Source: Panopea generosa | Lineage: Eukaryota > Mollusca > Bivalvia > Adapedonta > Hiatellidae | Assembly: GCA_029582155.1 (NCBI GenBank) | Contig: CM055895.1 | Coordinates: 7,312,544-7,376,543 of the forward strand | Length of the DNA: 64,000 nt | Direction: 5' to 3' | Shown: positions 40,101 to 64,000 of the stretch, piece after piece | Layout of the letters: each line of letters begins with the position of its first letter | Position numbering within the stretch: position 1 is the first letter of the stretch | Program-made: the position numbers and the translations under genes | Notes under the pieces: generated by a model | What the model was told of the DNA's origin: nothing | The model's database searches: none | Seen by the model: the letters and a program-made list of their open reading frames with translations, nothing else

Positions 40101-43100
40101 ATTGATGGTGTATGCAACAAAGATAGGATGGGGAGGTGAATAAGGATTGATTAATATGATGGTATATAATACAACATAGATAGGATGGGGTGGTGAATAA
40201 GGATTGATTAATATGGATGGTATATACAACATAGATAGGATGGGGAGGTGAATAAGGATTGATTAATATGGATGGTATATAATACAACATAGATAGGATG
40301 GGGTGGTGAATAAGGATTGATTAATATGGATGGTATATGCAACATAGATAGGATGGGGAGGTGAATAAGGATTGATTAATATGGATGGTATATAATACAA
40401 CATAGATAGGATGGGGAGGTGAATAAGGATTGCTTTATATGGATGGTATATAATACAACATAGATAGGATGGGGAGGTGAATAAGGATTGCTTAATATGG
40501 ATGGTATATAATACAACATAGATAGGATGGGGAGGTGAATAAGGATTGCTTAATATGGATGGTATATAATACAACATAGATAGGATGGGGTGGTGAATAA
40601 GGATTGCTTAATATGGATGGTATATAATACAAAATAGATAGGATGGGGAGGTGGATAAGGATTGCTTAATATGGATGGTATATAATACAACATAGATAGG
40701 ATGGGGAGGTGAATAAGGATTGCTTAATATGGATGGTATATAATACATCATATATAGGATGGGGAGGTGAATAAGGATTGATTAATATGGATGGTATATA
40801 ATACAACATAGATAGGATGGGGTGGTGAATAAGGATTGATTAATATGGATGGTATATAATACAACATAGATAGGATGGGGAGGTGAATAAGGATTGCTTA
40901 ATATGGATGGTATATAATACATCATATATAGGATGGGGAGGTGAATAAGGATTGATTAATATGGATGGTATATAATACAACATAGATAGGATGGGGTGGT
41001 GAATAAGGATTGATTAATATGGATGGTATATAATACAACATAGATAGGATGGGGAGGTGAATAAGGATTGCTTAATATGGATGGTGTATGCAACATAGAT
41101 AGGTCGGGGAGGTGAATAAGGATTGCTTAATATGGATGGTGTATGCAACATAGATAGGATGGGGAGGTGAATAAGGATTGCTTAATATGGATGGTATATG
41201 CAACATAGCTAGGAAGGGGAGGTGAATAAGGATTGCTTAATATGGATGGTGTATGCAACATAGATAGGTCGGGGAGGTGAATAAGGATTGCTTAATATGG
41301 ATGGTATATAATACAACATAGATAGGACGGGGAGGTGAATAAGGATTGATTAATATTGATTGTATATACAACATAGATAGGTCGGGGAGGTGAATAAGGA
41401 TTGCTTAATATGGATGGTATATACAACATAGATAGGTCAGGGAGGTGAATAAGGATTGCTTAGTATGGATGGTATATAAAACAACATAGATAGGACTGGG
41501 AGGTGAATAAGGATTGCTTAATATGGATGGTATATGCAACATAGATAGGATGGGGAGGTGAATAAGGATTGATTAATATGGATGGTATAAAATACAACAA
41601 AGATAGGACGGGGAGGTGAATAGGTATTGATTAATATGGATGGTGTATACTACATAGATAGGACAGGGAGGTGAATAAGGATTGCTTAATATGGATGGTA
41701 TATACAGCATAGATAGAATGGGGAGGTGAATAAGGATTGCTTAATATGGATGGTGTATACTACATAGATAGGACAGGGAGGTGAATAAGGATTGCTTAAT
41801 ATGGATGGTATATGCAACATAGATAGGATGGGGAGGTGAATATGGGTTGATTAATATGGATGGTATATACAACATAGATAGGATGGGGAGGTGAATAAGG
41901 ATTGCTTAATATGGATGGTATAAAAAACAACATAGATAGGATGGGGAGGTGAATAAGGATTGATTAATATGGATGGTATATACAACATAGATAGAATGGG
42001 GAGGTGAATAAGGATTGATTAATATGGATGGTATATAATACAACATATATAGGATGAGAAGGTGAATAGGGATTGATTGATGTGGATGGTGTATACAACA
42101 TAGATAGGATGGGGAGGTGAATGAGGATTGATTAATATGGATGGTGTATACAACATAGATAGAATTGGGAGGTGAATAAGGATTGATTAATAGGGATGGT
42201 AAATACAACGTAGATAGGATGGGGAGGTGAATGAGGATTGATTTTTTTTTTTTTTAATTAATGGATGAACTTAACCCTTTATTCCATAGATACGCGTTTT
42301 CCAGCACCAATCACAGAAGGCCTTTGAAAACAGTGCAGGAAGAGTTCAGATTGCTTGTCACAGAAGGCCTTTGAAAACAGTCTAGGAAGAGTTCAGATTG
42401 CTCATAACAAGCAATCTGAACACTTCCTGCACTGTTTTCCACTCTGTCAGTTAATATGAACATAATTCACCCATTGCTGATACGTGGTGAATTAATGCTT
42501 TCGATTTGGAAGAGTCCAAGAAAATGAGCAAAGGGTTAAGGTATATGCAACATAGATGGGATAGTTAAGAAATACAATGTATTACAATCGTATGATAATA
42601 TTGGGATATATGGTGGATGATGTTTGAAATGGGAAGTATTATATTATGAGATCAATATGATATTATAGATGACAACAGCTGTTACATTGATTTGTAAGCA
42701 GTTTTAGTGGCTCTGTGCTGCTACCTGCATTAGCTAATTAGCATACAATTCGTTTAATTATTGAATTAGGATAGTTGCCCATGTGCATGTGTTTGTGTGA
42801 ATATATGTTTATATAAGTAGGACTAGTTTGTAGTTTCCTTTTATAAGAAAGTAGATTTATATGTGCATAAGGATTGAATTGGTTATTTTTTTTATTGTAA
42901 GTATTATTTTTATATTTTTAGTAATTGTGCATGTTTTTAAGTGGGGGTATAGTAATTACAGTGTTTGTTCGTCTATCTGTCTGCACACACAAATGGATAT
43001 TTAAGTGTCTATAGAGCTCATGGTTGGTAATTTTTTTGACAGTTGAAAAATATTAAGTAGCTAAAAATGCTTTTATGTGGCTCTGTTGCATAGTCACACA

Positions 43101-49100: not shown

Positions 49101-52100
49101 TTTGAATTTACCCAAGCAGCGAGCCTTCCCACAGGCTCTTCAGGCCTTTGATTATTTGTTGTGAATCAAAATCAAGAAAGAAGCCAACTTCTACATTAAT
49201 TGTTAACACCATGGGACCTACACTTTTTTTCCAAACCTAACAAAAATTGTCAGTGATGATTATGACCATAAAATTTTATAATGTTTACAGACAGAAAAAA
49301 TGAACTAGAGGAGGAACATAGAATATCATCTGGGGAATATTCCGGGGCAGGTGGTCAATCGTTTGTGAAACGCTATCAAGACCTCAAGGAACAGGACGAT
49401 TTGTCAGCTGGAAACTTTGCTGATCTTCTAAGGAACTCTACCTTGAACAGAATGCAACGTCTGGGAGACTGGAAAAGACCTAAGGTTTGAGTTTAGCTTT
49501 TTTTTTTTTCTTTTTTTTTTTGAATGGGGTTAAAAGGGAACTTATCAGGATTTTCCGAACTTTTAAAATTGGCTAAAATATATATTTTTTAAAAATGTCA
49601 GGGCTATATATACTCATAGACCCCATATTGCCGAAAAAAAATATATTTAAACCTGTCAATATAATATATTTAAAGGGGATTTCCTAACTTGGATTACACG
49701 CCTAGGTTAGACTTAAATAGATTTCCCCCTTAAAACTGCAACATATTTTGCCACATAATAAATGAGTCCTGTGATTTCATTTTGATTTCAAATTTATCCG
49801 TTAGTAGAGGGTGATGCATAGATTTTGTTGTTGTTTTGTTTTGCTGATGCAATTACAAATGTGTTTGCTATGGTAATGGACTTAGTAAAAATGTTCCAGA
49901 AATTGAGGATCCCATGATTAAAACATATCTTTTTTATGAAACTTGGTAGAAATGTAATTGGAAATGAGGTTTTGCATGTCATAATATTTTGATGATGCAG
50001 TCTGTCAGTAAAAAAAATACTTGATATGGTTTAACAAAACTTGGTATTAGAGGGCAATGAGGAGATCTGCATGACATTTTGTTCTGTTGGTACAGTCATT
50101 CAGTAAAAAAAACTAGAGATACATAACTTGACATATAGGTGGAGGGGCAACGAGGTAATTGCATATCACTTGACATGTAGTTAGAGGGGCAACAAGGAGA
50201 TTGCATATCACTTGACATGTAGGTAGAGGGAAAATGAGGAGATTGCATATCACTTGACATGTAGGTAGAGGGCAACGAGGAGATTGCATATCACTTGACA
50301 TGTAGGTAGAGGGGCAACAAGGAGATTGCATATCACTTGACATATAGGTAGAAGGGCAATGAGGAGATTGCATATCACTTGACATGTAGGTAGAAGGGCA
50401 ATGAGGAGATTGCATATCACTTGACATGTAGGTAGAAGGGCAATGAGGAGATTGCATATCACTTAACATGAAGTTAGAGGGGCAATGACGAGATTGCATA
50501 TCACTTGACATGTAGGTAGAGAGGCAATGAGGAGATTGCATATCACTTGACATGTAGGTAGAGGGGCAACGATGAGATTGCATATCACTTTACATGTAGT
50601 TAGATACACAACAAGGAGATTGCATATCACTTGACATGTAATTAGAGGGGCAACGAGGAGATTGCATATCACTTGACATGTTGGTAGAGGGGCATCGAGG
50701 AGACTGCATATCACTTGACATGTAAGTAGAGGGGCAATGAGGAGATTGCATATCACTTGACATGTAGGTAGAGGGGCAACGAGGAGATTGCATATCACTT
50801 GACATGTAAGTAAAGGGGCAACAAGGAGATTGCATATCACTTGACATGTAGGTAGAGGGGCAATGAGGAGATTGCATATCACTTGACATGTAGGTAGAAG
50901 GGCAATGAGGAGATTGCATATCACTTGACATGTAGTTAGAGGGGCAATGAGGAGATTGCATATCACTTGACATGTAAGTAGAGGGGCAATGAGGAGATTG
51001 CATATCACTTGACATGTAGGTAGAAGGGCAATGAGGTGATTACATATCACTTGACATGTAGGTAGAGGGAAAACGAGGAGATTGCATATCACTTGACATG
51101 TAGGTAGAAGGGCAACAAGGAGATTGCATATCACTTGACATGTAGGTAGAGGGGCAACGAGGAGATTGCATATCACTTGACATGTAGTTAGAGGGGCAAC
51201 AAGGAGATTGCATATCACTTGACATGTAGGTAGAGGGGCAACAAGGAGATTGCATATCACTTGACATGTAGGTAGAAGGGCAACAAGGAGATTGCATATC
51301 ACTTGACATGTAGGTAGAGGGCAACGAGGAGATTGCATATCACTTGACATGTAGTTATAGGGGCAACAAGGAGATTGCATATCACTTGACATGTAGGTAG
51401 AAGGGCAACGAGGAGATTGCATATCACTTGACATGTAGGTAGAGGGGCAACAAGGAGATTGCATATCACTTGACATGTAGGTAGAGGGGCAACGAGGAGA
51501 TTGCATATCACTTGACATGTAGGTAGAAGGGCAACAAGGAGATTGCATATCACTTGACATGTAGGTAGAGAGGCAACGAGGAGATTGCATATCACTTGAC
51601 ATGTAGTTAGAGGGGCAACAAGGAGATTGCATATCACTTGACATGTAGGTAGAGGGGCAACAAGGAGATTGCATATCACTTGACATGTAAGTAGAAGGGC
51701 AACAAGGAGATTGCATATCACTTGACATGTAGGTAGAGGGGCAACGAAGAGATTGCATATCACTTGACATGTAGTTAGAGGGGCAACGAGGAGATTGCAT
51801 ATCACTTGACATGTAGGTAGAGGGGCAATGAGGAGATTGCATATCACTTGACATGTAGTTAGAGGGGCAATGAGGAGATTGCATATCACTTGACATGTAA
51901 GTAGAGGGGCAATGAGGAGATTGCATATCACTTGACATGTAGGTAGAGGAAAAACGAGGAGATTGCATATCACTTAACATGTAGGTAAAGGGGCAACAAG
52001 GAGATTGCATATCACTTGACATGTAGGTAGAGGGGCAACGAGGAGATTGCATATCACTTGACATGTAGGTAGAGGGAAAACGAGGAGATTGCATATCACT

Positions 52101-55100
52101 TGACATGTAGGTAGAGGGGCAACGAGGAGATTGCATATCACTTGACATGTAGGTAGAGGGAAAACGAGGAGATTGCATATCACTTGACATGTAGGTAGAG
52201 GGGCAACGAGGAGATTGCATATCACTTGACATGTAGGTAGAGGGGCAATGAGGAGATTGCATATCATTTAACATGTAGGTAGAGGGGCAACAAGGAGATT
52301 GCATATTACTTGACATGAAGGTAGAGGGGCAATGAGGAGATTGCATATCACTTGACATGTAGGTAGAGGGGCAGTGAGGAGATTGCATATCACTTGACAT
52401 GTAGTTAGAGGGGCAACAAGAAGATTGCATATCACTTGACATGTAGTTAGAGGGGCGACGAGGAGATTGCATATCACTTGACATGTAGGTAGAGGGGCAA
52501 CGAGGAGATTGCATATAACTTGACATGTAGGTAGAGGGGCAACGAGGTGATTGCATATCTTTTGACATGTAGGTAGAGAGGCAACGAGGAGATTGCATAT
52601 CACATTTTTTTCTGTACAGACCATCTGTCTAAAAATCTAAGAGATATTTTAACAAAGCTTAAAAATGTATTCATGTCATATTTTGTTGATGGTACATGTA
52701 AAATAAAAAAACAAGATTGCTGTGGAAATGTGCAAATGCGGAATTGTGACTCTATTTAATATGATTATGTTTTTCATTCTTAACTTCAGAAAATTGAGGC
52801 TTTTAGCAGAAGAAGTAGAGAATTTTTTGAACCTTTCAAATTGTGGGTTACGTCATTTAAGATCATAGAAGGTAAGAACAGTTTACTACTAATAGGATCT
52901 TATTGAGTTGTCTTGTATTTACAAGTTTGTACAGAGTTAAATGAAATGTGCGTACGTAGTCCAAAGCTCCCATTATGAGTGTATTATATGTTTTTCATTT
53001 TCTTCTTGTACTTTGGACATCCATAAAAATGTTTTTCACCATGCACCTACACACCCATGCAAACCTTTTTAACCAACTTCAAAGGGGTGAATTTTTTTTG
53101 TATAATTTTTGTCAGATTTTGTTAGAAAGTACTGCATGTAGGAAGTAAAAGCAGGGGCATTTGTGGTTCATCTTGGTAAGTATTTATTTTTGGGTCAGTA
53201 GGTGAAGGTCACAGTGGCTACATTTAAAAAAAATGAGTTACTGAACAATAATTGAATACTGCTATTCAGTTCAGGATGGTTTGTCTTGATAAATAAATGA
53301 CCCCTATTCACTTTGAAGTTGTGATCAAAGGTTACTGTTACTATTTATAGAAAATTGGTTTCATATCAGTACATGTAACAGAATACTGTTATTCAACCCA
53401 CAATCTTCAAAGTTTGCAGGATGGTTTGTCTTGGTAAATAAATGACCCCTATTCACTTTGAAGTCAAGGTCAAAGATCATGGTCCCAAATACTAGAGTCA
53501 AAACTCATTATCTCAAAATGGAGGGAATGCCAAAATAAAATCAAGATATCAGAATATCAACATAGATTTTGTCTCAAGGTCATTATTTGTTTTCATCTGA
53601 TAATTGTCATATGTTGTATGTCAATTGTACTTTTGCTTTTATATTACTGTCTGTGCAGTAGGATTTCACTGTTGTAATAAATGCTCATATCCGGGTCTTT
53701 ATTTGAATTGTTTGGCAGTGTGAGATATAAGTTTAGGCTGAATGATTGATTCAAATGATATTTATACAGATTTCATGTAATCACTCAATTTGATCACATG
53801 ATGTTCACAATATTCTGTCAGTTGTTAAAACAGACATCTTTACTGTAGACCGGTAATAAGTGTTGCGTCTTAAACAAATTGAAAAATTGCATGCGTAGAT
53901 ATTCACACGAAGCAGTAAATAAATAACCCCTATTCATTTTAAAGTCGATAGGTCAAAAAACAAAGGTTAAAGATCAAAGTCACCATAACTATTTATAGAA
54001 ATCAAGTTTCCTTCTGATATCTAGAGAAGAGTTTGGCCTAGATCCTGAAAGATATTTGGTCGAACTCCTGAAGGATCCAGTTTTCTAACACAGTTTAATG
54101 GGGGAAATGCGGGTTTTACAAATATTTCTTGCTGATAACAAGTTTCATCAACTGATTTCTTCTAAAAACAACAATGATAGTTTTATAATTCTTTTAATCA
54201 GTGGAATAAGTTTGTGGTGAGGGCATAGTATAGTGTTGGAGCATCAATCTCAGGATCAGACAGATGTAAGTCCATTCCCCCCGCCACGGCCATATTTTGT
54301 GTCTTTGAGCGACACATTGTAAGTTGTAATAACATGTTGTTTCACAATGAATGTAAAACAGTTTTAAATTAAATTCAATCAGTCATATCATGCAAAATTA
54401 AGTTAATCGCCAGTTTTGTTGACTTTTTCAGGCAAGTTTGGTACGGCTGTGATGAGCTACTTCAGGTTTATACGCTGGCTCATGTTTCTGAACCTGTTCC
54501 TCATGGTTATTATGTTCTGCGTCACCACCGTACCATATTTGGTGTTGCGACCAACACCGTTCGAGCAATCGATCAATACATCAACATCAGTGTTCCATGA
54601 TTTGGCGGTGAATTGCACTAAACAGTACAAAACCTACCAGCAGAATGTTCTAAAAGAAGAGAATACATTTGAGAAAGTTCTTGATATTTTACAAGGAACA
54701 GTAAGTTAGTTCATCTTTAAATGTACAGTTTTCTTCATTGTTCCACTGTACTGTCCTTCCCAACTTGAGAATTCAACTCAGAATGTTAGTGTACTTTTAA
54801 TATAGGGGGAAAATTTACGGAGAATTTTAGTTGACTGTTAATATAGAGGGAAAATTTACTCAGAATTTTAGTTCACTGTTAATATAGAGGGAAAATTTGC
54901 TCAGAATTTTAGTTCACTGTTAATATAAAGGGAAAATTTAATCAGAATTTCAGTTTACTGTTAATATAAAAGGACAATTTACTGTAAATATAGAGGGAAA
55001 AATTACTCAGAATTTTAGTTTATTGTTAGTATAGAGGGAAAACTTACTCAGAATTTTAGTTCAATGTTAATATAGAGGGAAAATTTACTCAGAATTTTAG

Positions 55101-56642
55101 TTCACTGTTAATATAGAGGGAAAATTTGCTCAGAATTTTAGTTCACTTTTAATATAAAGGGAAAATTTAATCAGAATTTCAGTTTACTGTTAATATAGAA
55201 GGACAATTTACTGTAAATATAGAGGAAAAAATTACTCAGAATTTTAGTTTATTGTTAATATAGAGGGAAAACTTACTCAGAATTTTAGTTCAATGTTAAT
55301 GCAGAGGGAAAATTTACTCAGAATTTTAGTTTACTGTTAATATAGAAGAAAACTTTACTGTTTATATAGAGGGAAACACATGAATATAAGGGAACATTTA
55401 TATAGAAATTTAGATTATTGTTAATATAAATGGAAAACTTACTCAAAATTTTAGTTCAATGTTAATATAGAGGAAAACTTGAGTTTCTGCTCATTGCCCT
55501 TTTTGGTAAATTTAATTAGAGGTTAAGGCAACCATTTTAAGTTATTTTGTTGTTTTTTGTCCTTAATACTCAGGTTTAAATGTTCATGGTCAAGGTTACC
55601 TTTAATTATCAAAGTTTGTATGTCACATAATTGTAAAACTGAAATTTACATTAATCTAGAACTCTTAATTTTGGACTTTGAAGGTCAAATGTTTGCAAAT
55701 GAAAAGTCTTATCTGCAATAAGATTACTGAGGGAAATTCTATCAAATTCCATAAAAGTATCAAGGACAATAGTTTTTGAAGGTGTGTCAAATGCAATATC
55801 CAATTTTTCACATCTCTCAGGTCAAGGTCATGTTTGAAGGTCTAATGCTTGAAGGTCAAAAGTTTGAATCATAGGCTGGCACATTTGTGAGAATGCATGT
55901 GTTTTTCAAATGAAGTTCTCCTGTGGCGCATTTTGATATTACAACTTTTACACAATGTATACATTTTACAATTTGATCACTATGGAAACAATGCAATTTT
56001 TCATCATATTATTATAATTTCATTATGATTAAACCCTGAAAATGGTCATCATTTCTGTTAACATAACTCTGAAAGTCACAATTACAAGATCACCAAAATC
56101 AATATTCTGCCATTACTATGGAAACTAGAGAGCAAATTTGTCCTGATTAGAAACAAGACAGCTCAAGGGGATTTATGTTGTCACAATTAATAAAAGCACT
56201 GTTTATGTTTATTCATATATCAGTACATGTATATGTTCATTATCCTATATGATTGTTATTGTCATCTGTAAAAGCTGTTATATATCCCAGCATTCATCAC
56301 TGGCTGTATTGTGTACTTGCAGGGCTGGATGGAGAGGACAATACTGTTTTATGGCAGATACCACAACCGCACCGTGTACAATGATGATAATGAACCCTAC
56401 ACATACAATATGGGTCTGGCATATATCCTCGCTATAGGCGCCTGCTTCCTTGTCAGTTTCTTGCTCATTGTAAAAAAGTAAGAACACGTCTCTAATATTC
56501 CAAGTTTGAAATGTGCAGTATGTTGTAGGCTCAGTACATAATATGCATCCTGTGTTCAATGTATCATATTCAATGTATCATATTCAATGTATCATATAGG
56601 GAAGGCGGTAACTAATGTTGTAAGAACTTGTGACCCGACCCA

Positions 56643-56679
<37 letters not shown>

Positions 56680-59600
56680 AGGGAGATAATTGAAATCACA
56701 ATGGAATTTCCGATTTTTGGGATCTTTTCAAATGCACATTCACAATACACGACACACACAACACGTTTCTTAATTTGTCCTTTATATAGCATGTGAGTTG
56801 TCATAGTATATAAGTCATGGTTGACACCAGATTGGTTTGGCAGATCTATGCCTTGATATTGTGTCTATGGTTTGCATTGTAGCTAGGTGCGCTGGTTGTA
56901 GTCTGGTCTGTACATAATGAGATGCAATTTATCCATTTTAATAATTATTTTATTTTTTAAAACATTTTAAGCATTTTATCCTGATACACTACCTTTAAAA
57001 AATGAAATGCTCGTAAAAAAACATACTTGCTTGTGTTTCAATAATTCTACATACAATAAAACCTGTATAAAGCAGTCACTCAAGGGAGAGACCAAAAATG
57101 ACCCCTTAACACAGGTGGCTGCTTACAACAATACAGGTTGATTAAAATGAAAATTATAAAAAATTGTTAATAAAAAACTTGACTGTTTAAAACAAGTGGT
57201 TGATTAACAGAGGTGATCACTAACGCAGGTTTACTGTAATGACTATTGATTGAAATTTAGTGGTATATCTGTATAATTTAAGGCATTGCTATAAACTAGT
57301 TATTTCTTAAATATCTTTGTCAATGCTAATAGGTTCATTTGTCTCTGTAGTTTTAAATTGTACCTTTCAGCTCGGCCAAAACTGTCAAAGCTACATTTGG
57401 CATGGAGAGTTCAGTTGCCGCCTACAATAATCGTGTGTTTGCCGGATGGGATTATGCAATTTCCAATAAAAAAGCAGCAAAGGTGAAAAAGGCAAATCTA
57501 TATAGAGAATATATGGTAAGAATACAGGCATCTGAAAAAATTGACATTGAATAATTCCAGCATGAGCTTGTTATTTAATTTAACTTATAGGGAATATGCC
57601 AGTGTTTTTCAAAATTTATATAATTGGCTATAAACATTTTTTTATAATAATCATGCCAATTTATACTCACTAACCCTGTATTGTTAACAGGATATCTTTT
57701 TAAACATGCCAAAATAATATATCGGAAAAGGGATTTCTTAACTTGGGCTACATTCCTAGATTAGACTAAAATAGATTTCGGGCTTAAAATTGCAACATTT
57801 TTTTACCTATTAAATGGGTCTAGTGATTTCATTTTGATCTTAATAAGATCCAGTTATTCAAGTTTACATGTAGTAAAAATTGTTTCAGCTTAGAAAGAGT
57901 CTGAATGACGATGTGATGGTCATCAAGCAATATTAAATTGGTGTCTATTTTTAGAATGGGAACATCCGTCTTTATATATAAACATTTCTAGTTATTTATT
58001 ACTGCTTATACAAATATATTTCACTTCTCTTTGTATTTTGTTAAGAGCCTAAGTACCATCCATAAAAAAGTATATGTGTGCCATGCTCAAACTTACCCAT
58101 TCAAAATGTAACTACTCAAAATTTTTTATTCTCTTCAAAAGAGTTGATTTTCTAAAATGATTATTGTCTGTTTTTGTTAAAAGTAACTACTTTTATGACA
58201 AATCAAAGTATGGCACAAAAAAAAACAAAAAAACATAGCTACCGACATACCTACCTCCCCACACTAAAACTTCATGGTCTGGCACGGCAAACAAACAATA
58301 TTTGAAAGATAACCATTCCAAAATATTCCAAAATGCCAGTCATTGTCATTTTGCTTTACAAGCCAACCTGTAAAATAAAGGATGAGATGTTTTGTGTATC
58401 TATTGAGATAATTATATTTAAGAAATACATAGTTAGTACCTAAGAACGTCAGCGGTATTATGGCAAGTGTAACAAAAGTACTAATGGTGAGCATTTATTT
58501 TTTTCATAATGAGCCAAAAATACAGCTACCTTTCTAAGCTACTGACCAAACAATTTATTTGTCATGAAACACTATTAGTTTTCGTTTCTTTTTGTTCTTA
58601 AGGTGAAAATGAATTTATATTTTATCATTGTACTTCCCCTTTAACAAAACACGGCAATCAGCGAATGAATTTTAAGTACAACTTTGCATGCTAAGGAATC
58701 ACCTATGTAAATGAAATAGTTTGATAATGGAACCTGTGGTTTTGAGTTTGCTATGTGTAATTAATCTTCCTAACTTAAAATATATATTCTTACCTAATGG
58801 TTCATTCACAATGTTTCCTTGCAAATACAGCATTAATCCCAAATCTAAATACAGATAAGGGGGGAAAAGTAGTTCCAGCTGCTAGAAAAATACAACTTGG
58901 AAAATATTATGCTTATAGCAGTCAGCTGTTTTATGCTGGTTAAGTTAAAAGTTGCATGATAAATAATTAATCTCATTAACTATAAAAATAAAATGTAGTT
59001 AATCAATAAGACATAATTAATCTATAAGATGTAATTAATCTATAAGATGCAATTAATCTATAAGATGTAGTTAATCTATAAGATGTAATTTATCTATAAG
59101 ATGTAATCAGTCTATAAGATTTAATTACTCTATTAGATGTAATTAATCTATAAGATGTAATTAATCTATAAGATATAATTAATCTATAAGATTTACTTAA
59201 TTAATCTATAAGACATAATTAATCTATAAGATGTAATTTATCTATAAGATTTAATTAATCTATAAGATTTACTTAATCTATTAGATGTAATTAATCTATA
59301 AGATGTAATTAACCTATTAGATGTTATTAATCTATAAGATGTAACAGGTTGTTATTAATCTATAAGATGTAATTAACCTATTAGATGTTATTAATCTATA
59401 AGATGTACTTAATCTAAAAAGAACTTATTAATTTATAACAACTGATTCATCTCAGTAACTACAGTATTACAATATTTACTTGTCATAATTTCAGAATTAT
59501 ATAGCAGAAGAGAGATTGAAGATTAAACGAGAATCTAGATCTGCGAACGACAAGGCCACACTATTCTTTATACGTTTCATCGTAAACATTGTGGTACTTG

Positions 59601-61965
59601 GGCTACTGGTTGGGGCCCTCTTCCTCGTATATTACACAACTGACACACTACTGGAGGTATGTTTCCTATGATATTTATATCAGTGTTCTTGTTAACTGGC
59701 CCAACAATCCCGACCCCGGTACAGATGATCTCTGGGACTGGTTATGGTATGGCAACTGTATTCTGAACTTGTCAGTTTGGGTTATATATAGTGAGCTAAA
59801 AATATATCTGAAAATTCATAGACAAGACTGGTAGTTTATATACAGATATCTCAGTTTACAATTTAAGTGAATGCCACTAGTTCCTCTCGCAGAATTTAAA
59901 ACTTTGGCAGTTGAAGTTAAAGTTAGTTTTTTAAAAATGCATATAACAGATAGATTTGAAAATATTAACATTCAACGTAAGATGCATTGAAAATAGGAAG
60001 TATTGAACATACAATGCATCTATGATAGTAATATATGAAGGAGGTGGCTGTATCTGATGTTGAAAGAACTCGAGGCCACACTTTTTTTATCTATAATCAT
60101 ATATGGTTTATATCATATGCACAATTCATAATGTTATTAGTGTTTATATGACAATAAAATGAGTTTAAACTAAACTTTTGTACTTTAACATGAAATGTCT
60201 TGAAAATCAGAAATATTGAACTTGTGCATTTAAGTACTTCTTGGAAAATGTTTTTTTTGCCAATTAAATGTATTTAAATTAATTTACAGTCAAATCTGTC
60301 TTAAGCAGCCAGTCAAGGGAAGGAGCAAAAGTGGTATTTTAAGATAGGTTGTTGTTTAATACAAGTCAATTAGCTCTGAAAGCATTGACATGACAATTAA
60401 TAAATGTAGCTGCTAAAGACAAGTGGCTGCTTAATAGAGGTGACCACTTATACAGGTTTGACTGTAGTACTTAATAGAGGTGACCGCTTATACAGGTTTG
60501 ACTGTAGTACTTAATAGAGGTGACCGCTTATACAGGTTTGACTGTATTACTTAATAGAGGTGACCGCTTATACAGGTTTGACTGTAGTACTTAATAGAGG
60601 TGACCACTTATACAGGTTTGACTGTAGTACTTAATAGAGGTGACCACTTATACAGGTTTGACTGTAGTACTTAATAGAGGTGACCACTTATACAGGTTTG
60701 ACTGTAGTACTTAATAGAGGTGACCACTTATACAGGTTTGACTGTAGTACTTAATAGAGGTGACCACTTATACAGGTTTGACTGTAGTACTTAATAGAGG
60801 TGACCACTTATACAGGTTTGACTGTAGTACTTAATAGAGGTGACCACTTATACAGGTTTGACTGTAGTACGTAATAGAGGTGACCACTTATACAGGTTTG
60901 ACTGTAGTACTTAATAGAGGTGACCACTTATACAGGTTTGACTGTAGTACTTAATAGAGGTGACCACTTATACAGGTTTGACTGTAGTACTTAATAGAGG
61001 TGACCACTTATACAGGTTTGACTGTAGTACTGTGCCAAATTAAAGAAACAACAATGTAGTGGTGATTGTGAAATTTAAAAAAAGAAGAGTTTATTTAAAT
61101 CATTTGTGGAATTTTCTATAACCAGCTTCAGAGCTGTCTTGTGTGTTTTATGCCACATTTTATAGGGCTATAATTTGTTTATGAGATATTGTTTCCCATT
61201 CTGAGTAGACAAATTGGCTCATTAGTTATGTTGTAAATTTTTCCTCGAGGCGTCTTTGATCATACAAGTGGCTGTAATAAAGGGTGTGAAAATAGAACAA
61301 AGACAGTGATTGGTACAGATTGGTGGTTGTAATACCCGATTAGCAGGGTGCCCGTATTATCGGAGTGCACTTAGAGCGTAAGCGGAGCGCGAACGGAGTG
61401 CAGATTGACCGCTGACGGAGCGGACCTGGACACCAACTATTGAATAAAGAAGGAAAAAAAACGTCCCTTAAATAAATGCCCATTATAGTGGGGTGGTCTT
61501 AATATCGGTGTGGTCATAAGGTGGAGTTTTACTGTACTTGCAAGAACAGAGGTTCTACTCAGATTCATTCTGAGGTCTTCAGCCACATATAAAACTGGAT
61601 ATGCCATATATAACCTGAAATGTATTGAAAATGGTGTAAAAACTCGATTAAAAAAAAATCTTAATCAGTGGATCAAGAGCCCAAACACTTTGATTTTCAG
61701 AAATGAGACTGTTCAAATACTCAAGCGAATATGAAGCAGTAGAGATAGGTATTGTTTTCGCTCTGATATACTGTATGTTAACATTTTGTGTATTTGTATT
61801 TCAGCTACAAAAGCAGACACTGAATGAGATTGTTGCTCTAATTGTGCAGTACCTACCTTACCTGACCATCACAGTACTCAACTTTCTCATTCCAATGATC
61901 TTCCAGAAACTTGTCATCCTCGAAGATTACACCCACAGTAATGCCCTCACTGTAACACTAGCCAG
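24780..61965 (+). CDS. Transmembrane channel-like (TMC) protein, TMC5/7-like; 3' end outside the window
   Basis: Nine exons splice in frame (coordinates in the exon entries) to 607 codons plus 2 nt. Residues 1-220 are hydrophilic: His/Gly/Arg-rich, then basic (RRRRTSSKRRSSSRKR). The TMC hallmarks follow in order: KLWVTSFKIIEGKFGTAVMS then TM1 (about 323-347), a loop ending GWMERTILFYGRYHNRT, TM2 (about 430-450), AAYNNRVFAGWDYAI (compare the family's VF-GWD block), a basic amphipathic stretch, TM3 (about 522-549) and TM4 (about 562-592). TMC proteins are membrane proteins of the anoctamin/OSCA fold; TMC1/2 form hair-cell mechanotransduction channels, while TMC5-8 roles are less clear. TM5-10 and the CWET-type TMC signature lie downstream. 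Subfamily assignment (TMC5/7) rests on the GWMERT...LFYG wording and is tentative. The 22-kb first intron and repeat-laden later introns are notable; the exons show no lesion. Confidence 0.93.
25300..25500 (+). mobile_element. SINE family 4 (tRNA-derived), copy 1
   Basis: Head AGTGTAATGAATAGAGTCTT and GGAGTTGCGTGTTCCATCCC; body AAAACAACACTCAGTATTGA and CAGTTCATATAAGCTCTGAG; tail AAGCTGCAATAAATTAGTA. The body recurs at 36535-36665. Confidence 0.6.
25535..25720 (+). mobile_element. MITE family A, copy 2
   Basis: TACATTCAAACCTGTTTTAA at the left and ACACAGGTTTGACTGCA at the right, with the family's internal AAGCAGCCAGTCAAGGGA and CTGCTAAATAGAG. TIRs slightly mutated. Confidence 0.75.
25747..26182 (+). 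repeat. 436-bp direct duplication, copy 2
   Basis: Partner of 22942-23377. It sits at the start of TMC intron 1, so the two copies flank coding exon 1 at a spacing of 2805 bp. Confidence 0.85.
27400..28430 (+). mobile_element. Interspersed repeat family R2 with about five internal tandem units
   Basis: Begins TTAGCTCACCATGACGAAGT and AGACACCCAGGTTAAACTTT. A unit of roughly 165 bp (AAGATATCTATGCAACCACT, CATGTGTGTTAACCATCATC, GGAACACACAGAGACAAGAA, GGTTGCATTTTGGCACAGTT) then repeats about five times. It closes with a second AGACACCCAGGTTAAAC near 28310 and GTTGTCATCTGACAATTTTTG. Confidence 0.7.
28880..29162. mobile_element. Composite foldback element with two opposed tRNA-like heads
   Basis: GTAACCTACTAGGGGAG at 28880 and CTCTCCTAGTAGATTAC at 29146 are inverted (15 of 17 match). 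Inside, 28988-29040 on the plus strand resembles tRNA-Lys (GGCCGGCTAGCTCAATTGG, AGAGCACGAGGCTCTTTAAT) but has an extra T in the anticodon loop and no T-arm. On the minus strand, 29135-29080 gives TAGCTCATTAAGCAGAGC and CCTAGGTTTGAGTCCC, a second A/B-box pair. Neither is a complete tRNA. Confidence 0.5.
30590..30828 (-). mobile_element. SINE family 1, minus-strand copy
   Basis: Reverse of the 18252 copy: GGGCCCAATTAGCTCAGTCG near 30825, the B-box region near 30775 and the body GGGAAAGTTATCAGTTACTT near 30675. Confidence 0.7.
30870..31025 (+). repeat. Interspersed repeat family R1, partial
   Basis: TTTACAAACTCACTGAGCC, AAACATGCCAAAATATTATA, TTGAAAAGGAATTGCAGG, TAGATTGAAATAAATTTCCC and AAATTGCAATTTCATTT match the middle of the family. 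Confidence 0.55.
31150..31320 (+). mobile_element. SINE family 3, worn copy
   Basis: GTTCTACTCAGTTTCTTG, GGTCTGCCTCCACCAATAAA, ACTGGATGCAATATATAG and AAATAGCATTGAACCCATTT match the 3' body; the head is reduced to GGTTACAGATTTGAACCC. Confidence 0.6.
32190..33475 (+). pseudogene. L1/Tx1-like LINE ORF2 C-terminus with 3' UTR
   Basis: A 150-codon open stretch reads LNPYIKIGGKDIFYEKWYKK, GIAFINDLVKNTGEFYTYEE, FIQFNGVIAAIK and, near its end, WSDIYTSPFRCTKNTMLQWF. An in-frame TGA at 32657 replaces a sense codon, after which the frame continues INHRILPTRKFLYMI, then SPICKYCQMEETLTHMLWSC: the CX2C...H...C knuckle near the C-terminus of L1-clade ORF2. More stops follow. The 3' end may be the CACCTATGACGCGGAGAATA ... 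A-rich tail at 33420-33490. The catalytic reverse transcriptase part is absent, as in a 5'-truncated insertion. Same clade as the endonuclease fragment at 8405; whether the same family cannot be told since they do not overlap. Confidence 0.8.
33821..33976 (+). mobile_element. MITE family A, copy 3
   Basis: TACATTAAAACCTGTCTTAA left, CACAAGTTTGACTGTAA right; shorter than other copies, with an internal deletion after TAGCCGAGGGAAAGAGACA. Confidence 0.7.
34000..34155 (+). mobile_element. SINE family 1, body only
   Basis: CTAGCCACAGTCTCCGC, TTCACCGCTGATTTAAGTGG, CAAAGTTATCAAGTACTTAT, GGTACTGGTTAACCTTCAAG. The tRNA-like head is missing. Its last bases run into the 43-bp array. Confidence 0.6.
34142..35510. 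repeat. 43-bp minisatellite (about 31 copies), TMC intron 1
   Basis: Unit: AATATTAACACAAGCTGTAT, TCCAATATACATGTACTGCA, GTA. Spacing checked at 34561 and 34604 (43 bp). Copies vary at a few sites (ATACATG/ATGCATG, CTGCAGTAA/TTGTAATAA); edge copies are most divergent. Confidence 0.9.
36240..36485 (+). mobile_element. SINE family 3, good copy (tRNA-Leu/Ser-like head)
   Basis: GGGGTCCTCGTTGGCTAAGT and GGTCTAAGAC resemble the 5' part of a class II tRNA; AAGGTTGTAGGTTCGCATCC is the B box. Body: AGAGAAAGTTTGCCAGTTAC, GGTTCTACTCAGATTCATTT. Tail GTGTTAAACGACATTAAATA. Confidence 0.75.
36535..36665 (+). mobile_element. SINE family 4, body only
   Basis: AAAACAACACGCAGTAGTGG, CGGTTCATATAAGCTCTGAG and CAGCTTAAATAATTTAGTAC match the copy at 25300. 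Confidence 0.55.
37578..37819 (+). mobile_element. piggyBac-like MITE with central hairpin, copy 3
   Basis: TTAAACCTTTACTTCATAGA left, ATGAAGTAAAGGGTTAA right; central hairpin GAAAACAGTGCAAGAAGAGT...ACTTCCTGCACTGTTTTC. The right part carries a short duplication of GTCCAAAGGCGTCTTTAT (with TATCCAAAGGCGTCTTTAT before it). Confidence 0.85.
38420..42245. repeat. 55/58-bp minisatellite (about 67 copies), TMC intron 1
   Basis: Unit: GGATGGTATATAATACAACA, TAGATAGGATGGGGAGGTGA, ATAAGGATTGCTTAATAT (58 bp). A 3-bp shorter form replaces ATATAATACAAC with ATATGCAAC or ATATACAAC. Long and short forms cluster: short forms with TATTGG mainly near 39000-39450, long forms mainly near 40380-41040. The long minus-strand open frames here are products of the repeat. 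Confidence 0.92.
42271..42539 (+). mobile_element. piggyBac-like MITE inserted at the end of the 58-bp array
   Basis: TTAACCCTTTATTCCATAGA left, GCAAAGGGTTAA right. The hairpin's left arm (CACAGAAGGCCTTTGAAAAC...GAGTTCAGATTGC) is tandemly duplicated, making this copy longer. A remnant of array sequence (GGTATATGCAACATAGATGG) follows directly at 42540. Confidence 0.85.
43150..44735 (+). mobile_element. Interspersed repeat with GTCAAGGTCAC subrepeats, copy 2
   Basis: Same word set as 7200-8275 (TTTGAGATTTCATGTCC type, GATCAACATGACATGACGA, CTGTAACTTTGTC). Ends near AGACCACTTCATTGGCATGT and GTGACATTTCTTATT. Interrupted by a SINE at 43539-43770. Confidence 0.65.
43539..43770 (+). mobile_element. 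SINE family 3 with 14-bp target-site duplication
   Basis: Flanked by TTAAGACCCAGACA at 43525-43538 and again at 43771-43784, a clean duplication showing LINE-type insertion. Contains AAGGTTATAGGTTTGAGTCC, TTTATGTGAGAAAGTTTCC, GGATATGCCATATATAACC and GGCGTTAAACCCCATTAAAA. Confidence 0.85.
44805..45980 (+). mobile_element. Interspersed repeat with GTCAAGGTCAC subrepeats, copy 3
   Basis: Begins GGCATATAGTAATCCCAGAG and ends ACCATTTGGGGGGCATATGA then GTGACATTTCTTGTTTT: the same ends as copy 1, so this is a full-length element. Confidence 0.7.
46100..46750. repeat. 30-bp minisatellite (about 21 copies), TMC intron 1
   Basis: Unit TACTGACTGGTATGCATTAA plus GTATACAATG. The core 46250-46500 is nearly uniform; both edges drift. 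Confidence 0.9.
46815..46997 (-). mobile_element. MITE family A, copy 4
   Basis: Reverse orientation: CATAGTCAAACCTGTGTAAG and CCACCTCTATTAAGCAGCCA at the left, AGACAGGTTTGACTGTA at the right. It lies about 130 bp upstream of TMC exon 2. Confidence 0.8.
47124..47419 (+). CDS. TMC exon 2
   Basis: CTTGCAG|GTACACT acceptor, CTCAAAG|GTAACA donor. Completes the Arg codon from exon 1 and encodes about residues 120-218: SQYPDDTPVDIEQVTTLYIP, a basic patch (RRRRTSSKRRSSSRKRHERE) and NDLLNDEDNHLLPSLRFQRR. Ends in phase 1. The cytoplasmic N-terminal tail of the channel. Confidence 0.9.
47420..49290 (+). other. TMC intron 2
   Basis: GTAACA...TTTACAG. 47455-47760 holds degenerate interspersed-repeat wording (TAGCTCATCATTATG, GTCATGACCCTGGCGGC). 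The open frame at 48822 is listed apart. The rest is unremarkable AT-rich DNA. Confidence 0.7.
48822..49070 (+). pseudogene. 82-codon ORF fragment, possibly from a mobile-element protein
   Basis: Reads FHMEDGVYHGVCIFSNALIK, FDSYCWKSIDMDSVLYAGDY, LYRYIKEILNTPHSFLNPNE, LPFNISEI then stop. The W...ID-VL--GD-LY--I pattern followed by NELP resembles the substrate-side region of papain-like (OTU/C48-type) protease proteins found in bivalve mobile elements; this comparison is from memory and weak. Beyond the stop the same general style continues (YIFEFTQ) in the next 100 bases, suggesting a broken longer gene. Sits in TMC intron 2 in the same orientation, with no splice sites tying it to TMC. Confidence 0.35.
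49291..49484 (+). CDS. TMC exon 3
   Basis: TTTACAG|ACAGAAA acceptor; CCTAAG|GTTTGAG donor. Encodes about residues 219-283: ELEEEHRISSGEYSGAGGQS, FVKRYQDLKEQDDLSAGN, TLNRMQRLGDWKRPK. Ends in phase 0. The acidic-to-basic stretch before TM1 matches the usual TMC pre-TM1 region. Confidence 0.9.
49531..49790 (+). repeat. Interspersed repeat family R1, copy in intron 3
   Basis: AAAGGGAACTTATCAGGATT, TATATACTCATAGACCCCAT, GGGGATTTCCTAACTTGG, CCTAGGTTAGACTTAAATAG, ACATATTTTGCCACATAATA. Confidence 0.7.
50120..52606. repeat. 42-bp minisatellite (about 59 copies) filling TMC intron 3
   Basis: Unit GATTGCATATCACTTGACAT, GTAGGTAGAGGGGCAACGAG, GA. It fills about 2.5 of the intron's 3.3 kb. Because 42 is a multiple of 3 and the minus strand of the unit lacks stops, long minus-strand frames arise (up to 711 codons, with 14-residue repeats such as DMQSPRCPSTYMSS); these are not genes. 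Confidence 0.95.
52790..52871 (+). CDS. TMC exon 4
   Basis: TTAACTTCAG|AAAATTG acceptor; ATAGAAG|GTAAGA donor; 82 bp, phase 0 in and phase 1 out. Encodes KIEAFSRRSREFFEPFKLWV, TSFKIIE and the first base of Gly. The W..S.K.IEG block just before TM1 is a TMC family signature. Confidence 0.92.
52872..54431 (+). other. TMC intron 4, with interspersed repeat
   Basis: 53090-54060 contains a dispersed element with two near copies of GGATGGTTTGTCTTG(A/G)T then AAATAAATGACCCCTATTCA (53275 and 53422) and a third worn block at 53910. A family 2 SINE follows at 54215. Confidence 0.6.
54215..54375 (+). mobile_element. SINE family 2, copy 3
   Basis: TGTGGTGAGGGCATAGTATA, ATGTAAGTCCATTCCCCC, GTGTCTTTGAGCGACACATT and TTGTTTCACAATGAATGTAA match the family. 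It ends only about 55 bp before exon 5. Confidence 0.6.
54432..54700 (+). CDS. TMC exon 5 (TM1)
   Basis: GACTTTTTCAG|GCAAGTT acceptor; GGAACA|GTAAGTT donor. Encodes about residues 311-400: GKFGTAVMSYFRFIRWLMFL, NLFLMVIMFCVTTVPYLVL (TM1), then an extracellular loop with two N-x-S/T sites (NTST, NCTK) ending FEKVLDILQGT. Confidence 0.95.
54780..55480. repeat. 41-bp minisatellite, TMC intron 5
   Basis: Unit AGTTCACTGTTAATATAGAG, GGAAAATTTACTCAGAATTT, T. About 16 copies, AT-rich and irregular. A larger block seems duplicated: 54840-55060 resembles 55095-55300, including the odd short unit GGACAATTTACTGTAAATAT. Confidence 0.85.
56323..56477 (+). CDS. TMC exon 6 (loop and TM2)
   Basis: TACTTGCAG|GGCTGG acceptor; GTAAAAAA|GTAAGA donor; phase 0 in, phase 2 out. 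Encodes GWMERTILFYGRYHNRTVYN, DDNEPYTYN, then TM2 MGLAYILAIGACFLVSFLLI. The GWME...LFYG wording favours the TMC5/TMC7 branch. Confidence 0.95.
56646..56676. repeat. (TA)n microsatellite
   Basis: Pure TA run in intron 6. Confidence 0.95.
57053..57238 (+). mobile_element. MITE family A, copy 5
   Basis: TACAATAAAACCTGTATAAA left, GCAGGTTTACTGTA right, with CAGTCACTCAAGGGAGAGAC and TGATTAACAGAGGTGATC inside. In TMC intron 6. Confidence 0.7.
57371..57515 (+). CDS. TMC exon 7
   Basis: ACCTTTCAG|CTCGGCC acceptor; TATATG|GTAAGAA donor. Completes an Asn codon, then SAKTVKATFGMESSVAAYNN, RVFAGWDYAISNKKAAKVKK and ANLYREYM, ending in phase 0. The VFAGWDY block is the intracellular TM2-TM3 loop motif of TMC proteins. 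Confidence 0.95.
57588..57960 (+). repeat. Interspersed repeat family R1, long copy in intron 7
   Basis: GGGAATATGCCAGTGTTTTT, TATACTCACTAACCCTGTAT, AACATGCCAAAATAATATAT, GGATTTCTTAACTTGGGCTA, then AGAGTCTGAATGACGATGTG and CATCAAGCAATATTAA. The last words recur at 23425-23465, extending the family's 3' side. Confidence 0.7.
58965..59425. repeat. 18-bp minisatellite (AATCTATAAGATGTAATT), TMC intron 7
   Basis: About 25 copies, AT-rich, with some units AACCTATTAGATGTTATT. Lies about 70 bp before exon 8. Confidence 0.9.
59495..59656 (+). CDS. TMC exon 8 (TM3)
   Basis: ATAATTTCAG|AATTAT acceptor; CTGGAG|GTATGTT donor; 54 full codons, phase 0 both sides. Encodes NYIAEERLKIKRESRSANDK (charged, amphipathic) then TM3 TLFFIRFIVNIVVLGLLVGA, LFLVYYTTDTLLE. 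Confidence 0.95.
60285..60466 (+). mobile_element. MITE family A, copy 6 (source of the 40-bp array)
   Basis: TACAGTCAAATCTGTCTTAA left; ATACAGGTTTGACTGTA right; internal AAGCAGCCAGTCAAGGGAAG. Its right 36 bp are continued by the tandem array. Confidence 0.85.
60431..61026. repeat. 40-bp minisatellite built from a MITE end, TMC intron 8
   Basis: Unit TTAATAGAGGTGACCACTTA, TACAGGTTTGACTGTAGTAC; about 15 copies, almost identical. Early copies have GACCGC, later ones GACCAC. The first unit is the MITE's own right end, and GTAC is the junction. Confidence 0.95.
61545..61660 (+). mobile_element. SINE family 3, 3' part
   Basis: GGTTCTACTCAGATTCATTC, AACTGGATATGCCATATATA, ACCTGAAATGTATTGAAAAT, GGTGTAAAAACTCGATTAAA. 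Head absent. It is preceded at 61260-61540 by a GC-richer stretch (GAGCGTAAGCGGAGCGCGAA) of unknown origin. Confidence 0.65.
61805..61965 (+). CDS. TMC exon 9 (TM4)
   Basis: TGTATTTCAG|CTACAAA acceptor; CTAGCCAG|GTTTGTC donor; phase 0 in, phase 2 out. Encodes LQKQTLNEIVALIVQYLPYL, TITVLNFLIPMIFQKLVILE (TM4), DYTHSNALTVTLA and the first two bases of an Arg codon. The family-typical TL-R ending supports the donor. The last 35 coding bases and the donor are repeated downstream as a minisatellite. Confidence 0.93.
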
Positions 61966-64000
61966 GTTTGTCATTCACTTATCCACAATAATGCCCTCAC
62001 TGTTACGCTAACCAGAATTGTCATTCACTGACCCAGAGTAATGCCCTCACTGTAACACTAGCCAGGTTTGTCATTCACTGACCCACAGTAATGCCCTAAT
62101 TGTAATACTAGCCAGGTTTGTTATTCACTGACACACAGTAATGCCCTCACTGTAACACTAGCCAGGATTGTCATTCACTGACCACAGTAATGCCGTCACT
62201 GTAATACTAGCCAGGTTTGTCATTCACTGACCACAGTAATGCCCACACTGTAATACTAGTCAGGTTTGCCATTCACTGACCCCCAGTAATGCCCTCACTG
62301 TAACACTAGCCAGGATTGTTATTCACTGACCCACAGTAATGCCCTCACTGTAATACTAGCCAGGTTTGTAATTCACTGACCCACAGTAATGCCCTCACTG
62401 TAATACAAGCCAGGTTTGCCATTCACTGACCCACAGTAATGCCCTCACTGTAATACTAGCCAGGTTTGCCATTCACTGACCCACAGAAATGCCCTCACTG
62501 TAATACTAGCCAGGTTTGTCATTCACTGACCCACAGTAATGCCCTCACTGTAATAATAGCCAGGTTTGTCATTCACTGACCCACATTAATGCCCTCACTG
62601 TAACACTAGCCAGGTTTGTCATTCACTGACCCACAGTAATGCCCTCACTGTAACTCTAGCCAGGTTTGTCATTCACTGACCCACAGTAATGCCCTCACTG
62701 TAACACTAGCCAGGTATGTTATTCACTGACCCACAGTAATGCCCTCACTGTTATACTAGCCAGGTGTGTCATTCACTGACCCACAGTAATGCCCTCACTG
62801 TAACACTAGCCAGGTTTGTCATTCACTGACCCACAGTAATGCCCTCACTGTAATACTAGCCATGTTTGTCTTCACTGACCCACAGTAATGCCCTCACTGT
62901 AACACTAGCCAGGATTGTAATTCACTGACCCACAGTAATGCCCTCACTGTAATACTAGTCAGGATTGTCATTCAGTGACCCACAGTAATGCCCTTACTGT
63001 AACACTAGCCAGGTTTGTCATTCACTGACCCACAGTAATGCCCTCACTGTAACACTAGCAAGGATTGTTATTCACTGACCCACAGTAATGCTCTCACTGT
63101 AACACTAGCCAGGATTGTCATTCACTGACCCACAGTAATGCCCTTACTGTAATACTAGCCAGGTTTGTAATTCACTGACCCACATTAATGCCCTCACTGT
63201 AATACTAGCCAGGATTGTCATTCACTGACCCACATTAATGCCCTCACTGTAATATTAGCCAGGATTGTCATTCACTGACCCACAGTAATGCCCTCACTGT
63301 AACACTAGCCAGGATTGTCATTCACTGACCCACAGTAATGCCCTTACTGTAATACTAGCCAGGTTTGTAATTCACTGACCCACAGTAATGCCCTCACTGT
63401 AATACTAGCCAGGATTGTAATTCACTGACCCACAGTAATGCCCTCACTGTAATACTAGCCAAGATTGTCATTCACTGACCCACAGTAATGCCCTTACTGT
63501 AATACTAGCCAGGTTTGTAATTCACTGACCCTCAGTAATGCCCTCACTGTAATACTAGCCATGTTTGTCTTCACTGACCCACAGTAATGCCGTCAATGTA
63601 ATACTAGCCAGGATTGTCATTCACTGACCCACAGTAATGCTCTCACTGTAACACTAGCCAGGTTTGTGTTCACTGACCCACAGTAATGCCCTCACTGTAA
63701 TACTAGCCAGGTTTGTAATTCACTGACCCTCAGTAATGCCCTCACTGTAATAGTAGCCATGTTTGTCTGCACTGACCCACAGTAATGCCCTCACTGTAAT
63801 ACTAGCCAGGATTGTCATTCACTGACCCACAGTAATGCCCTCACTGTAATACTAGCCAGGATTGTCATTCACTGACCCACAGTAATGCCCTCACTGTAAT
63901 ACTAGCTATGTTTGTCTTCACTGACCCACAGTAATGCCCTCTCTGTAACACTAGCCAGGATTGTAATTCACTGACCCACAGTAATGCCCTCACTGTAATA
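61931..64000 (+). repeat. 50-bp minisatellite seeded by the TMC exon 9 / intron 9 junction
   Basis: Unit ACCCACAGTAATGCCCTCAC, TGTAACACTAGCCAGGTTTG, TCATTCACTG; about 41 copies, running off the window. The first unit is exon 9's last 35 bases plus 15 bases of intron. Later copies are 90% or more alike. Two main variants sit at the splice-site position: CCAGGTTTGT (donor kept) and CCAGGATTGT (GT lost). A few copies are 48-49 bp. Confidence 0.96.

What the first reader, a model, noticed from the sequence alone, without database searches (positions are those of the whole stretch)
61931..64000. A minisatellite grown from an exon's 3' end and its 5' splice site
The 50-bp unit starts inside TMC coding sequence: 35 coding bases of exon 9 plus GTTTGTCATTCACTG of intron 9, then repeated about 41 times to the window edge. 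Each unit thus carries a copy of the real exon-intron junction. By eye about half keep AG|GT at the donor and the rest have AG|GA or other changes. Each unit also has CCCACAG just upstream, an acceptor-like AG, so a unit could act as a 27-nt micro-exon or as a decoy donor. The cell must choose the first donor among many look-alikes, or tolerate variable exon ends. Recombination between array and exon could also rewrite the last 11 residues of TM4's tail.
Basis: seen in the sequence. Interest (0 to 1): 0.82.

Follow-up and report, generated by a model that had tools for sequence, protein, structure and literature searches.

The report
Repeat array copied from splice junction
In an animal channel gene, the last 35 coding bases of one exon plus the first 15 bases of the following intron are repeated about 44 times in a row, so the true splice site is followed by dozens of copies of itself; this kind of repeat has been described in lancelets, and this genome shows it in several other genes too.

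Summary
A 50-bp minisatellite starts at 61931 inside exon 9 (61805-61965) of a TMC channel gene and runs past the window to 64108: 43.7 copies. The exon copy is the ancestor: four of four TMC-like paralogue exons found end at the same position and phase, homology to C. elegans TMC-1 runs into the repeated stretch, and a two-unit search finds the array at one place in the 1.47-Gb genome. 22 of 43 complete units, exon copy included, keep AG|GT. 17 of 25 later GT copies pair with U1 at least as well as the true donor. Any of the 25 used as donor adds a stop; a unit used as a 27-nt micro-exon would be in frame.

This kind is known: the lancelet "mirages" (PMC3087553, PMC3902484), reported not to disturb splicing. 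Added here is recurrence: an unrelated 52-bp mirage, at least 53.9 copies, at the same junction of a paralogue; cases at VPS4-like, IQUB-gene and ATM-like exons; and a two-copy founder stage in an ABC transporter. No RNA was available; splicing is untested.

The parts
61805..61965 (+). TMC exon 9 (TM4 region by recall of TMC topology), ends AG| in phase 2
   Evidence: reading frame continuous over exons 5-9; phmmer to C. elegans TMC-1 E=3.5e-14 over the joined exons; acceptor TATTTCAG
61931..61980 (+). unit 1: the exon copy, 35 coding + 15 intronic bases
61966..61974 (+). start of intron 9 at the true 5' splice site, CAG|GTTTGT
   Evidence: frame joins exon 10 (AG|A); position shared by 4 of 4 TMC-like paralogue exons found
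61981..64000 (+). 50-bp mirage array in intron 9 (continues to extended coordinate 64108, 43.7 copies in all)
61931..61938 (+). acceptor-like ACCCACAG inside the exon copy, repeated in the units; marks a 27-nt in-frame micro-exon in units that also keep AG|GT
   Evidence: 33 of 44 units CCCACAG; 21 of 43 complete units have AG plus AG|GT, 21 of 21 open in phase 2
54432..54700 (+). TMC exon 5
56323..56477 (+). TMC exon 6
57371..57515 (+). TMC exon 7
59495..59656 (+). TMC exon 8

Best explanation
It is a 'mirage' minisatellite. A tandem duplication of 50 bp spanning the 3' end of a conserved TMC exon and its 5' splice site occurred in place and grew by slippage or unequal exchange into the intron, away from the exon. 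Selection on the protein and on the first donor kept the exon copy, while the intronic copies drifted (mean pairwise identity 92%; about half have lost AG|GT). Most likely the spliceosome pairs the exon's own acceptor, 161 nt upstream, with the first donor, so the copies downstream are treated as intron. Occasional use of a copy as donor would add a stop codon and give a message likely to be destroyed. Shown: the array, its ancestry in the exon, its single place in the genome at the search's sensitivity, the decay of the copies, and other independent cases in this genome. Inferred: the growth mechanism, the use of the first donor, and near-neutrality.
For: Array and units. Exon frame and PDB homology into the repeated stretch. 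Four of four TMC-like paralogue exons share end position and phase (6 places fetched, 2 of them not TMC-like). Two-unit query found at one place. A founder stage exists elsewhere: an ABC transporter exon whose last 24 bases plus 82 intronic bases are duplicated once. An independent 52-bp mirage sits at the same junction of a paralogue; the two units are no more alike than shuffled sequence. Minisatellites fill 25,597 of 200,000 sampled bases in 21 arrays, so raw material is abundant. Lancelet mirages are reported not to disturb splicing (PMC3087553, PMC3902484; passages).
Against: No RNA. By U1 pairing the copies are not weaker than the true donor: 17 of 25 GT-bearing copies pair as well or better (U1 end recalled). 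Exon-near units keep AG|GT more often (15 of 18) than far ones (7 of 25), the reverse of purging of nearby decoys, though units are clonally related. The array's right end is not the expected complete unit but a junction with a dispersed repeat, so the original intron sequence after the junction is lost. The 15 intronic bases of the unit alone have 6 further exact matches elsewhere in the genome (14 places in all; 3 for the reversed control), as a short pattern would. The window exon has lost a proline that the paralogues keep. No related species could be compared.
Confidence: 0.86

Rival explanations
1. The array takes part in splicing: units are included at times as 27-nt micro-exons, each adding nine residues (mostly SNALTVILA or SNALTVTLA) between TM4 and TM5 of the channel, in frame.
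For: AG and AG|GT both lie at phase 2; 21 of 43 complete units (exon copy included) have both sites and 21 of 21 are open. Pyrimidine content before CCCACAG averages 0.64 over the 38 of 42 intronic units that end in AG, against 0.59-0.71 for six real acceptors of the gene.
Against: The intron between neighbouring units would be only 23 nt, so units would have to be skipped; pyrimidine runs are short (mean 3.3); no RNA evidence. The paralogue's units have no such phase match that I saw (my reading).
Confidence: 0.06
2. Units act as recursive splice sites: a spliceosome joins exon 9 to the ...CAG of a later unit and regenerates the same donor, leaving the mRNA unchanged. This would make mirages harmless by construction.
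For: Each intact unit reproduces the exon end followed by the donor. In the paralogue 30 of 53 complete units read CAG|GTAAGT, close to the recalled consensus of recursive sites.
Against: The tract before that AG is weak (pyrimidines 0.58 over 37 units of the window array, 0.56 over 30 sites of the paralogue); no nascent-RNA data.
Confidence: 0.05
3. The array came first (an ordinary intronic minisatellite) and its unit overwrote the end of exon 9 by gene conversion.
For: The conserved proline is lost within the repeated 12 residues; tail identity to the four paralogues is 3-4 of 12, while paralogues among themselves share 3-6 of 12.
Against: The repeated part encodes the TMC tail ending TLxR at the conserved position and phase; the two-unit query has no other place; the exon carries C at column 26 where 26 of 42 units carry T.
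Confidence: 0.04
4. Assembly artefact.
For: Long arrays are hard to assemble; copy number may be wrong.
Against: Units differ from each other in scattered ways and both array edges are read through; other cases of other unit lengths occur on other contigs or far away on the same one.
Confidence: 0.02

Closest known systems
'Mirage' minisatellites of lancelet genes: Adh3, globins BflGb6 and BflGb9, PGBD5, troponin C (PMC3087553 and PMC3902484, passages read; the original Adh paper, Nucleic Acids Res 2002 30:2871, not held)
   Same: [quoted passage not shown] many but not all copies keep AG/GT; boundary units escape homogenisation; published RNA suggests normal splicing.
   Different: Genome of 1.47 Gb, which by recall is larger than Branchiostoma genomes (phylum not established here); 43.7 and at least 53.9 copies against 3 and 6 in the two haplotypes of globin gene BflGb6 (Adh3 copy number not seen); a phase-matched micro-exon in the window array.
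IFI6 (6-16) minisatellite (Turri et al. 1995, title seen in reference lists only; use of two downstream repeat units as donors stated in PMC4526556, passage)
   Same: A minisatellite following an exon provides many donor sites.
   Different: There later units are used and encode isoforms; here each later donor would lead to a stop.
Tandem repeats at exon-intron boundaries of human genes in segmental duplications (PMC2812944, passages)
   Same: Minisatellite expansion at exon-intron boundaries; authors discuss new introns and cryptic splice sites.
   Different: On average about 4 repeats of 30 bp, in recently duplicated genes; no long array of donor copies described in the passages seen.
Intron gain by tandem duplication of AGGT segments (Rogers model; potato RdRp case PMC4974935, passages)
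   Same: Tandem duplication of sequence with splice signals.
   Different: Here an existing donor is multiplied and no new intron is shown.

Membership tests
mirage minisatellite | tandem repeat whose unit spans an exon-intron boundary | tested here: met
   unit = last 35 bases of exon 9 + 15 intronic bases
mirage minisatellite | genuine splice site is the edge unit and the copies lie in the intron | tested here: met
   by sequence only: frame joins exon 10; shared position in 4 of 4 paralogue exons; no RNA
mirage minisatellite | many but not all copies keep AG/GT | tested here: met
   22 of 43 complete units, exon copy included
mirage minisatellite | does not disturb regular splicing | not testable with these tools
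   no RNA data
mirage minisatellite | length instability between haplotypes or cells | not testable with these tools
   one assembly only
TMC channel family | sequence homology to TMC proteins over the N-terminal half | tested here: met
   C. elegans TMC-1 E=3.5e-14, TMC-2 E=1.3e-11; Pfam gave only two sub-threshold, unrelated families for these exons; the Pfam TMC domain is, by recall, further downstream
IFI6-type donor minisatellite | later units used as donors in mRNA | not testable with these tools
   in silico each of 25 later donors adds a stop

The most novel reading that the evidence does not exclude
In this genome the 3' ends of exons are favoured birthplaces of minisatellites. Thousands of genes may carry mirages, from fresh two-copy duplications to arrays of more than 50 units with dozens of consensus donors, on the downstream side because copies after the first donor are ignored while copies of an acceptor upstream would compete. 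Splicing in this animal would then have to rank identical donors by position alone, and some arrays (as here) would be reservoirs of in-frame micro-exons.
Probability: 0.22. Interest if true: 0.78.

Novelty: new member of a known kind. Interest (0 to 1): 0.57.

Why it matters
Arrays of near-identical donors after one exon are natural experiments on how the spliceosome chooses the first of many equal sites. A genome where they recur, including a two-copy founder stage and an array with 30 consensus donors, would let that rule, the micro-exon idea and intron-gain models be tested with ordinary long-read RNA.

Tried and rejected
Rejected: overwriting of the exon from another locus. Not supported: selection on the copied donors. 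In the window array the donor 8-mer is among the more variable stretches (46 of 50 windows are as low or lower), in the paralogue among the less variable (6 of 52). Rejected: a shared origin of the two TMC arrays (local score 7.0, shuffled mean 7.8, 344 of 500 shuffles as high). Led nowhere: Pfam on the TMC exons; phmmer with exon 9 alone; phmmer with two N-terminal ORFs; Rfam at the array's right edge (one match below its gathering score). The animal's phylum was not established: a motif search meant to test it did not complete. A resemblance of the dispersed repeat to bivalve mollusc repeats is recalled only. Of 12 ABC exon ends fetched, 7 had a donor I could read by eye; too few for a rate. 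Of 49 non-repetitive flank ORFs listed beside arrays only a few went to a family search (10 ORFs, 3 of them with a match over the cut-off), so exon-side arrays may have been missed, on either side of exons.

Full report
OBSERVATION. TRF finds a 50-bp array from 61931 to the window edge, 41.5 copies. The window lies in an unnamed 1.47-Gb genome as C2:7312544-7376543. The next stretch, fetched, shows the array ending at extended coordinate 64108: 43.7 copies, 43 complete units and one of 35 bases. The consensus is ACCCACAGTAATGCCCTCACTGTAATACTAGCCAG|GTTTGTCATTCACTG. Mean pairwise identity of complete units is 91.7%, and unit 2, next to the exon copy, is the most divergent.

GENE. Exons 5-9 (54432-54700, 56323-56477, 57371-57515, 59495-59656, 61805-61965) join in one frame and match C. 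elegans TMC-1 (E=3.5e-14) and TMC-2 (E=1.3e-11); the alignment continues into residues encoded by the repeated 35 bases. Pfam gave only two unrelated sub-threshold matches. Exon 10 starts at extended coordinate 64849 behind TTTCAG and continues (AG|A) R-SILLRLASLGVLIISLY, so by frame exon 9 ends at 61965 in phase 2.

ANCESTRY. A protein search of the same genome gave 8 places: two in this gene and six others. Of those six, fetched, four read as TMC-like (L041, L042, L043, L045) and two do not (L044, L046). In the four, the exon ends with an arginine codon split in phase 2 at the same position. Three of them (L041, L043, L045) show no array in the 180-191 intronic bases seen, apart from a simple CT run in L045; the fourth has its own array (below). 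A two-unit DNA query finds the array only here (one candidate at first look, with the tool's caveat that common words are skipped). The 15 intronic bases alone match 14 places exactly, 6 of them elsewhere, against 3 for the reversed control. The exon is therefore the likely source. One caution: in the 12-residue tail the window exon has histidine where the four paralogues and the aligned C. elegans sequences have proline, and tail identity to paralogues is 3-4 of 12, against 3-6 of 12 among paralogues.

RIGHT EDGE. The last unit stops at CCAG. What follows is a dispersed repeat with 39 other places among the 40 candidates scored (980 at first look). Two of seven other copies aligned show a tRNA-like TAGCCGAGTGG head and others variants of it; the array's TAGCCAG and this head overlap at the junction. 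The original intron sequence after the junction is thus not preserved.

SPLICING CAPACITY. 22 of 43 complete units keep AG|GT (exon copy included), 15 have AG|GA, 4 AT|GT, 2 other. U1 pairing (5' end recalled) gives -7.5 kcal/mol for the true donor; 17 of 25 other GT-bearing units reach that or better. Intact donors are commoner near the exon (15 of 18) than far from it (7 of 25), nominal p=0.0005, but units are not independent. Use of any of the 25 later GT sites puts a stop after residue 68 counted from exon 9's start. A unit spliced in as a micro-exon (AG to AG|GT, 27 nt) is in phase 2 at both ends and open in 21 of 21 units that have both sites, exon copy included. Pyrimidine content before the acceptor-like AG is 0.64 on average (38 of 42 intronic units end in AG) against 0.59-0.71 in six real acceptors, but runs are short.

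RECURRENCE IN THE SAME GENOME. (1) The TMC paralogue L042 (C2:84.93 Mb, minus strand) has at least 53.9 copies of a 52-bp unit made of its own last 17 exon bases plus 35 intronic bases, running to the end of the fetched stretch; 47 of 53 complete units keep AG|GT and 30 read CAG|GTAAGT. The two units are not alike beyond chance. (2) In 20 stretches of 10 kb at round coordinates that I picked without looking, 21 arrays of period 10-200 and 5 or more copies cover 25,597 of 200,000 bases. Among them: an exon with a MIT domain (Pfam 2.6e-16; VPS4 by recall) whose end is repeated as 39 bp x 6.7 (L026:3304-3570), with a next exon that joins in frame behind TTTTCAG; an 18-bp array that starts at the AG|GT of an exon near an IQUB-domain exon (Pfam 1e-25) in L029, where only the AG of the exon is shared and the exon itself had no Pfam match; and an array grown from the coding end and stop of a FATC exon (Pfam 9.1e-15; ATM by recall; L024). 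A second array in L029 and one in the TMC gene (75698-78924, extended) start about 27 nt after a donor without clear exon copy. (3) Of 12 ABC-transporter exon ends fetched, 7 had a donor I could read by eye, and one of these (L060+L057) shows a single tandem duplication of its last 24 exon bases and 82 intronic bases. Six other donors of this TMC gene show no copy within 3 kb downstream better than 17 of 27 bases. The cases I recognised lie on the downstream side of their exon. I found most of them by starting from arrays and by eye, so they give neither a rate nor a fair test of polarity.

KNOWN KIND. [quoted passage not shown] the original paper is not held). In the listings of ten searches of the open-licence library, which omits most subscription papers, I saw no long array of splice-junction copies reported under that name outside lancelets, but related cases exist: short tandem repeats at exon-intron boundaries of human duplicated genes (PMC2812944, passages), the human IFI6 minisatellite whose units are used as donors (PMC4526556, passage), and intron gain by tandem duplication in potato, with fission yeast cases cited there (PMC4974935, passages). 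An abalone gene has a 27-bp minisatellite in an intron; the passages seen do not say whether it touches an exon (PMC6905558).

MECHANISM. Most likely: in-place tandem duplication across the junction, growth into the intron, loss of many donors by drift, and continued use of the first donor by pairing with the exon's own acceptor. The last step is inferred from the published lancelet cases and from the stop codons that later donors would bring; it was not tested.

LIMITS. No RNA, no second individual, no related species, phylum not established, one assembly. Counts of recurrence are small and partly chosen.

Noticed in passing
L042/L047 (C2:84930200-84933200, minus strand): A TMC paralogue has at least 53.9 copies of a 52-bp unit carrying its own exon-9 donor, 30 of 53 complete units reading CAG|GTAAGT.
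   Followed up: yes
L026:3304-3570: 39-bp array grown from the end of a MIT-domain (VPS4-like) exon and its donor (T|GTAAGT); a next exon joins in frame.
   Followed up: partly
L060 and L057 (C2:95707700-95708220): ABC transporter exon end (24 bases) plus 82 intronic bases duplicated once: a founder-stage mirage.
   Followed up: partly
L024:1478-2240 (minus strand): 142-bp array that begins in the last coding bases and stop codon of a FATC (ATM-like) exon.
   Followed up: partly
L029:3456-4173 and 530-1359 (minus strand): Two arrays following exons of what looks like one gene with an IQUB domain; the first starts at AG|GT itself.
   Followed up: partly
64109 onward in extended coordinates (L009:2352 on): Dispersed tRNA-like repeat, 39 other places among 40 scored candidates, abutting the array at a short shared stretch.
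   Followed up: partly
window 50126-52603, 38477-42243, 34295-35482 and others: The window is full of other minisatellites; 21 arrays cover 12.8% of a 200-kb sample of the genome.
   Followed up: partly
window 1-105: Likely late exon of a second TMC gene lying just upstream (exon-9 equivalent at C2:7295621): similar to a downstream ORF in this gene's region (E=1.7e-6).
   Followed up: no
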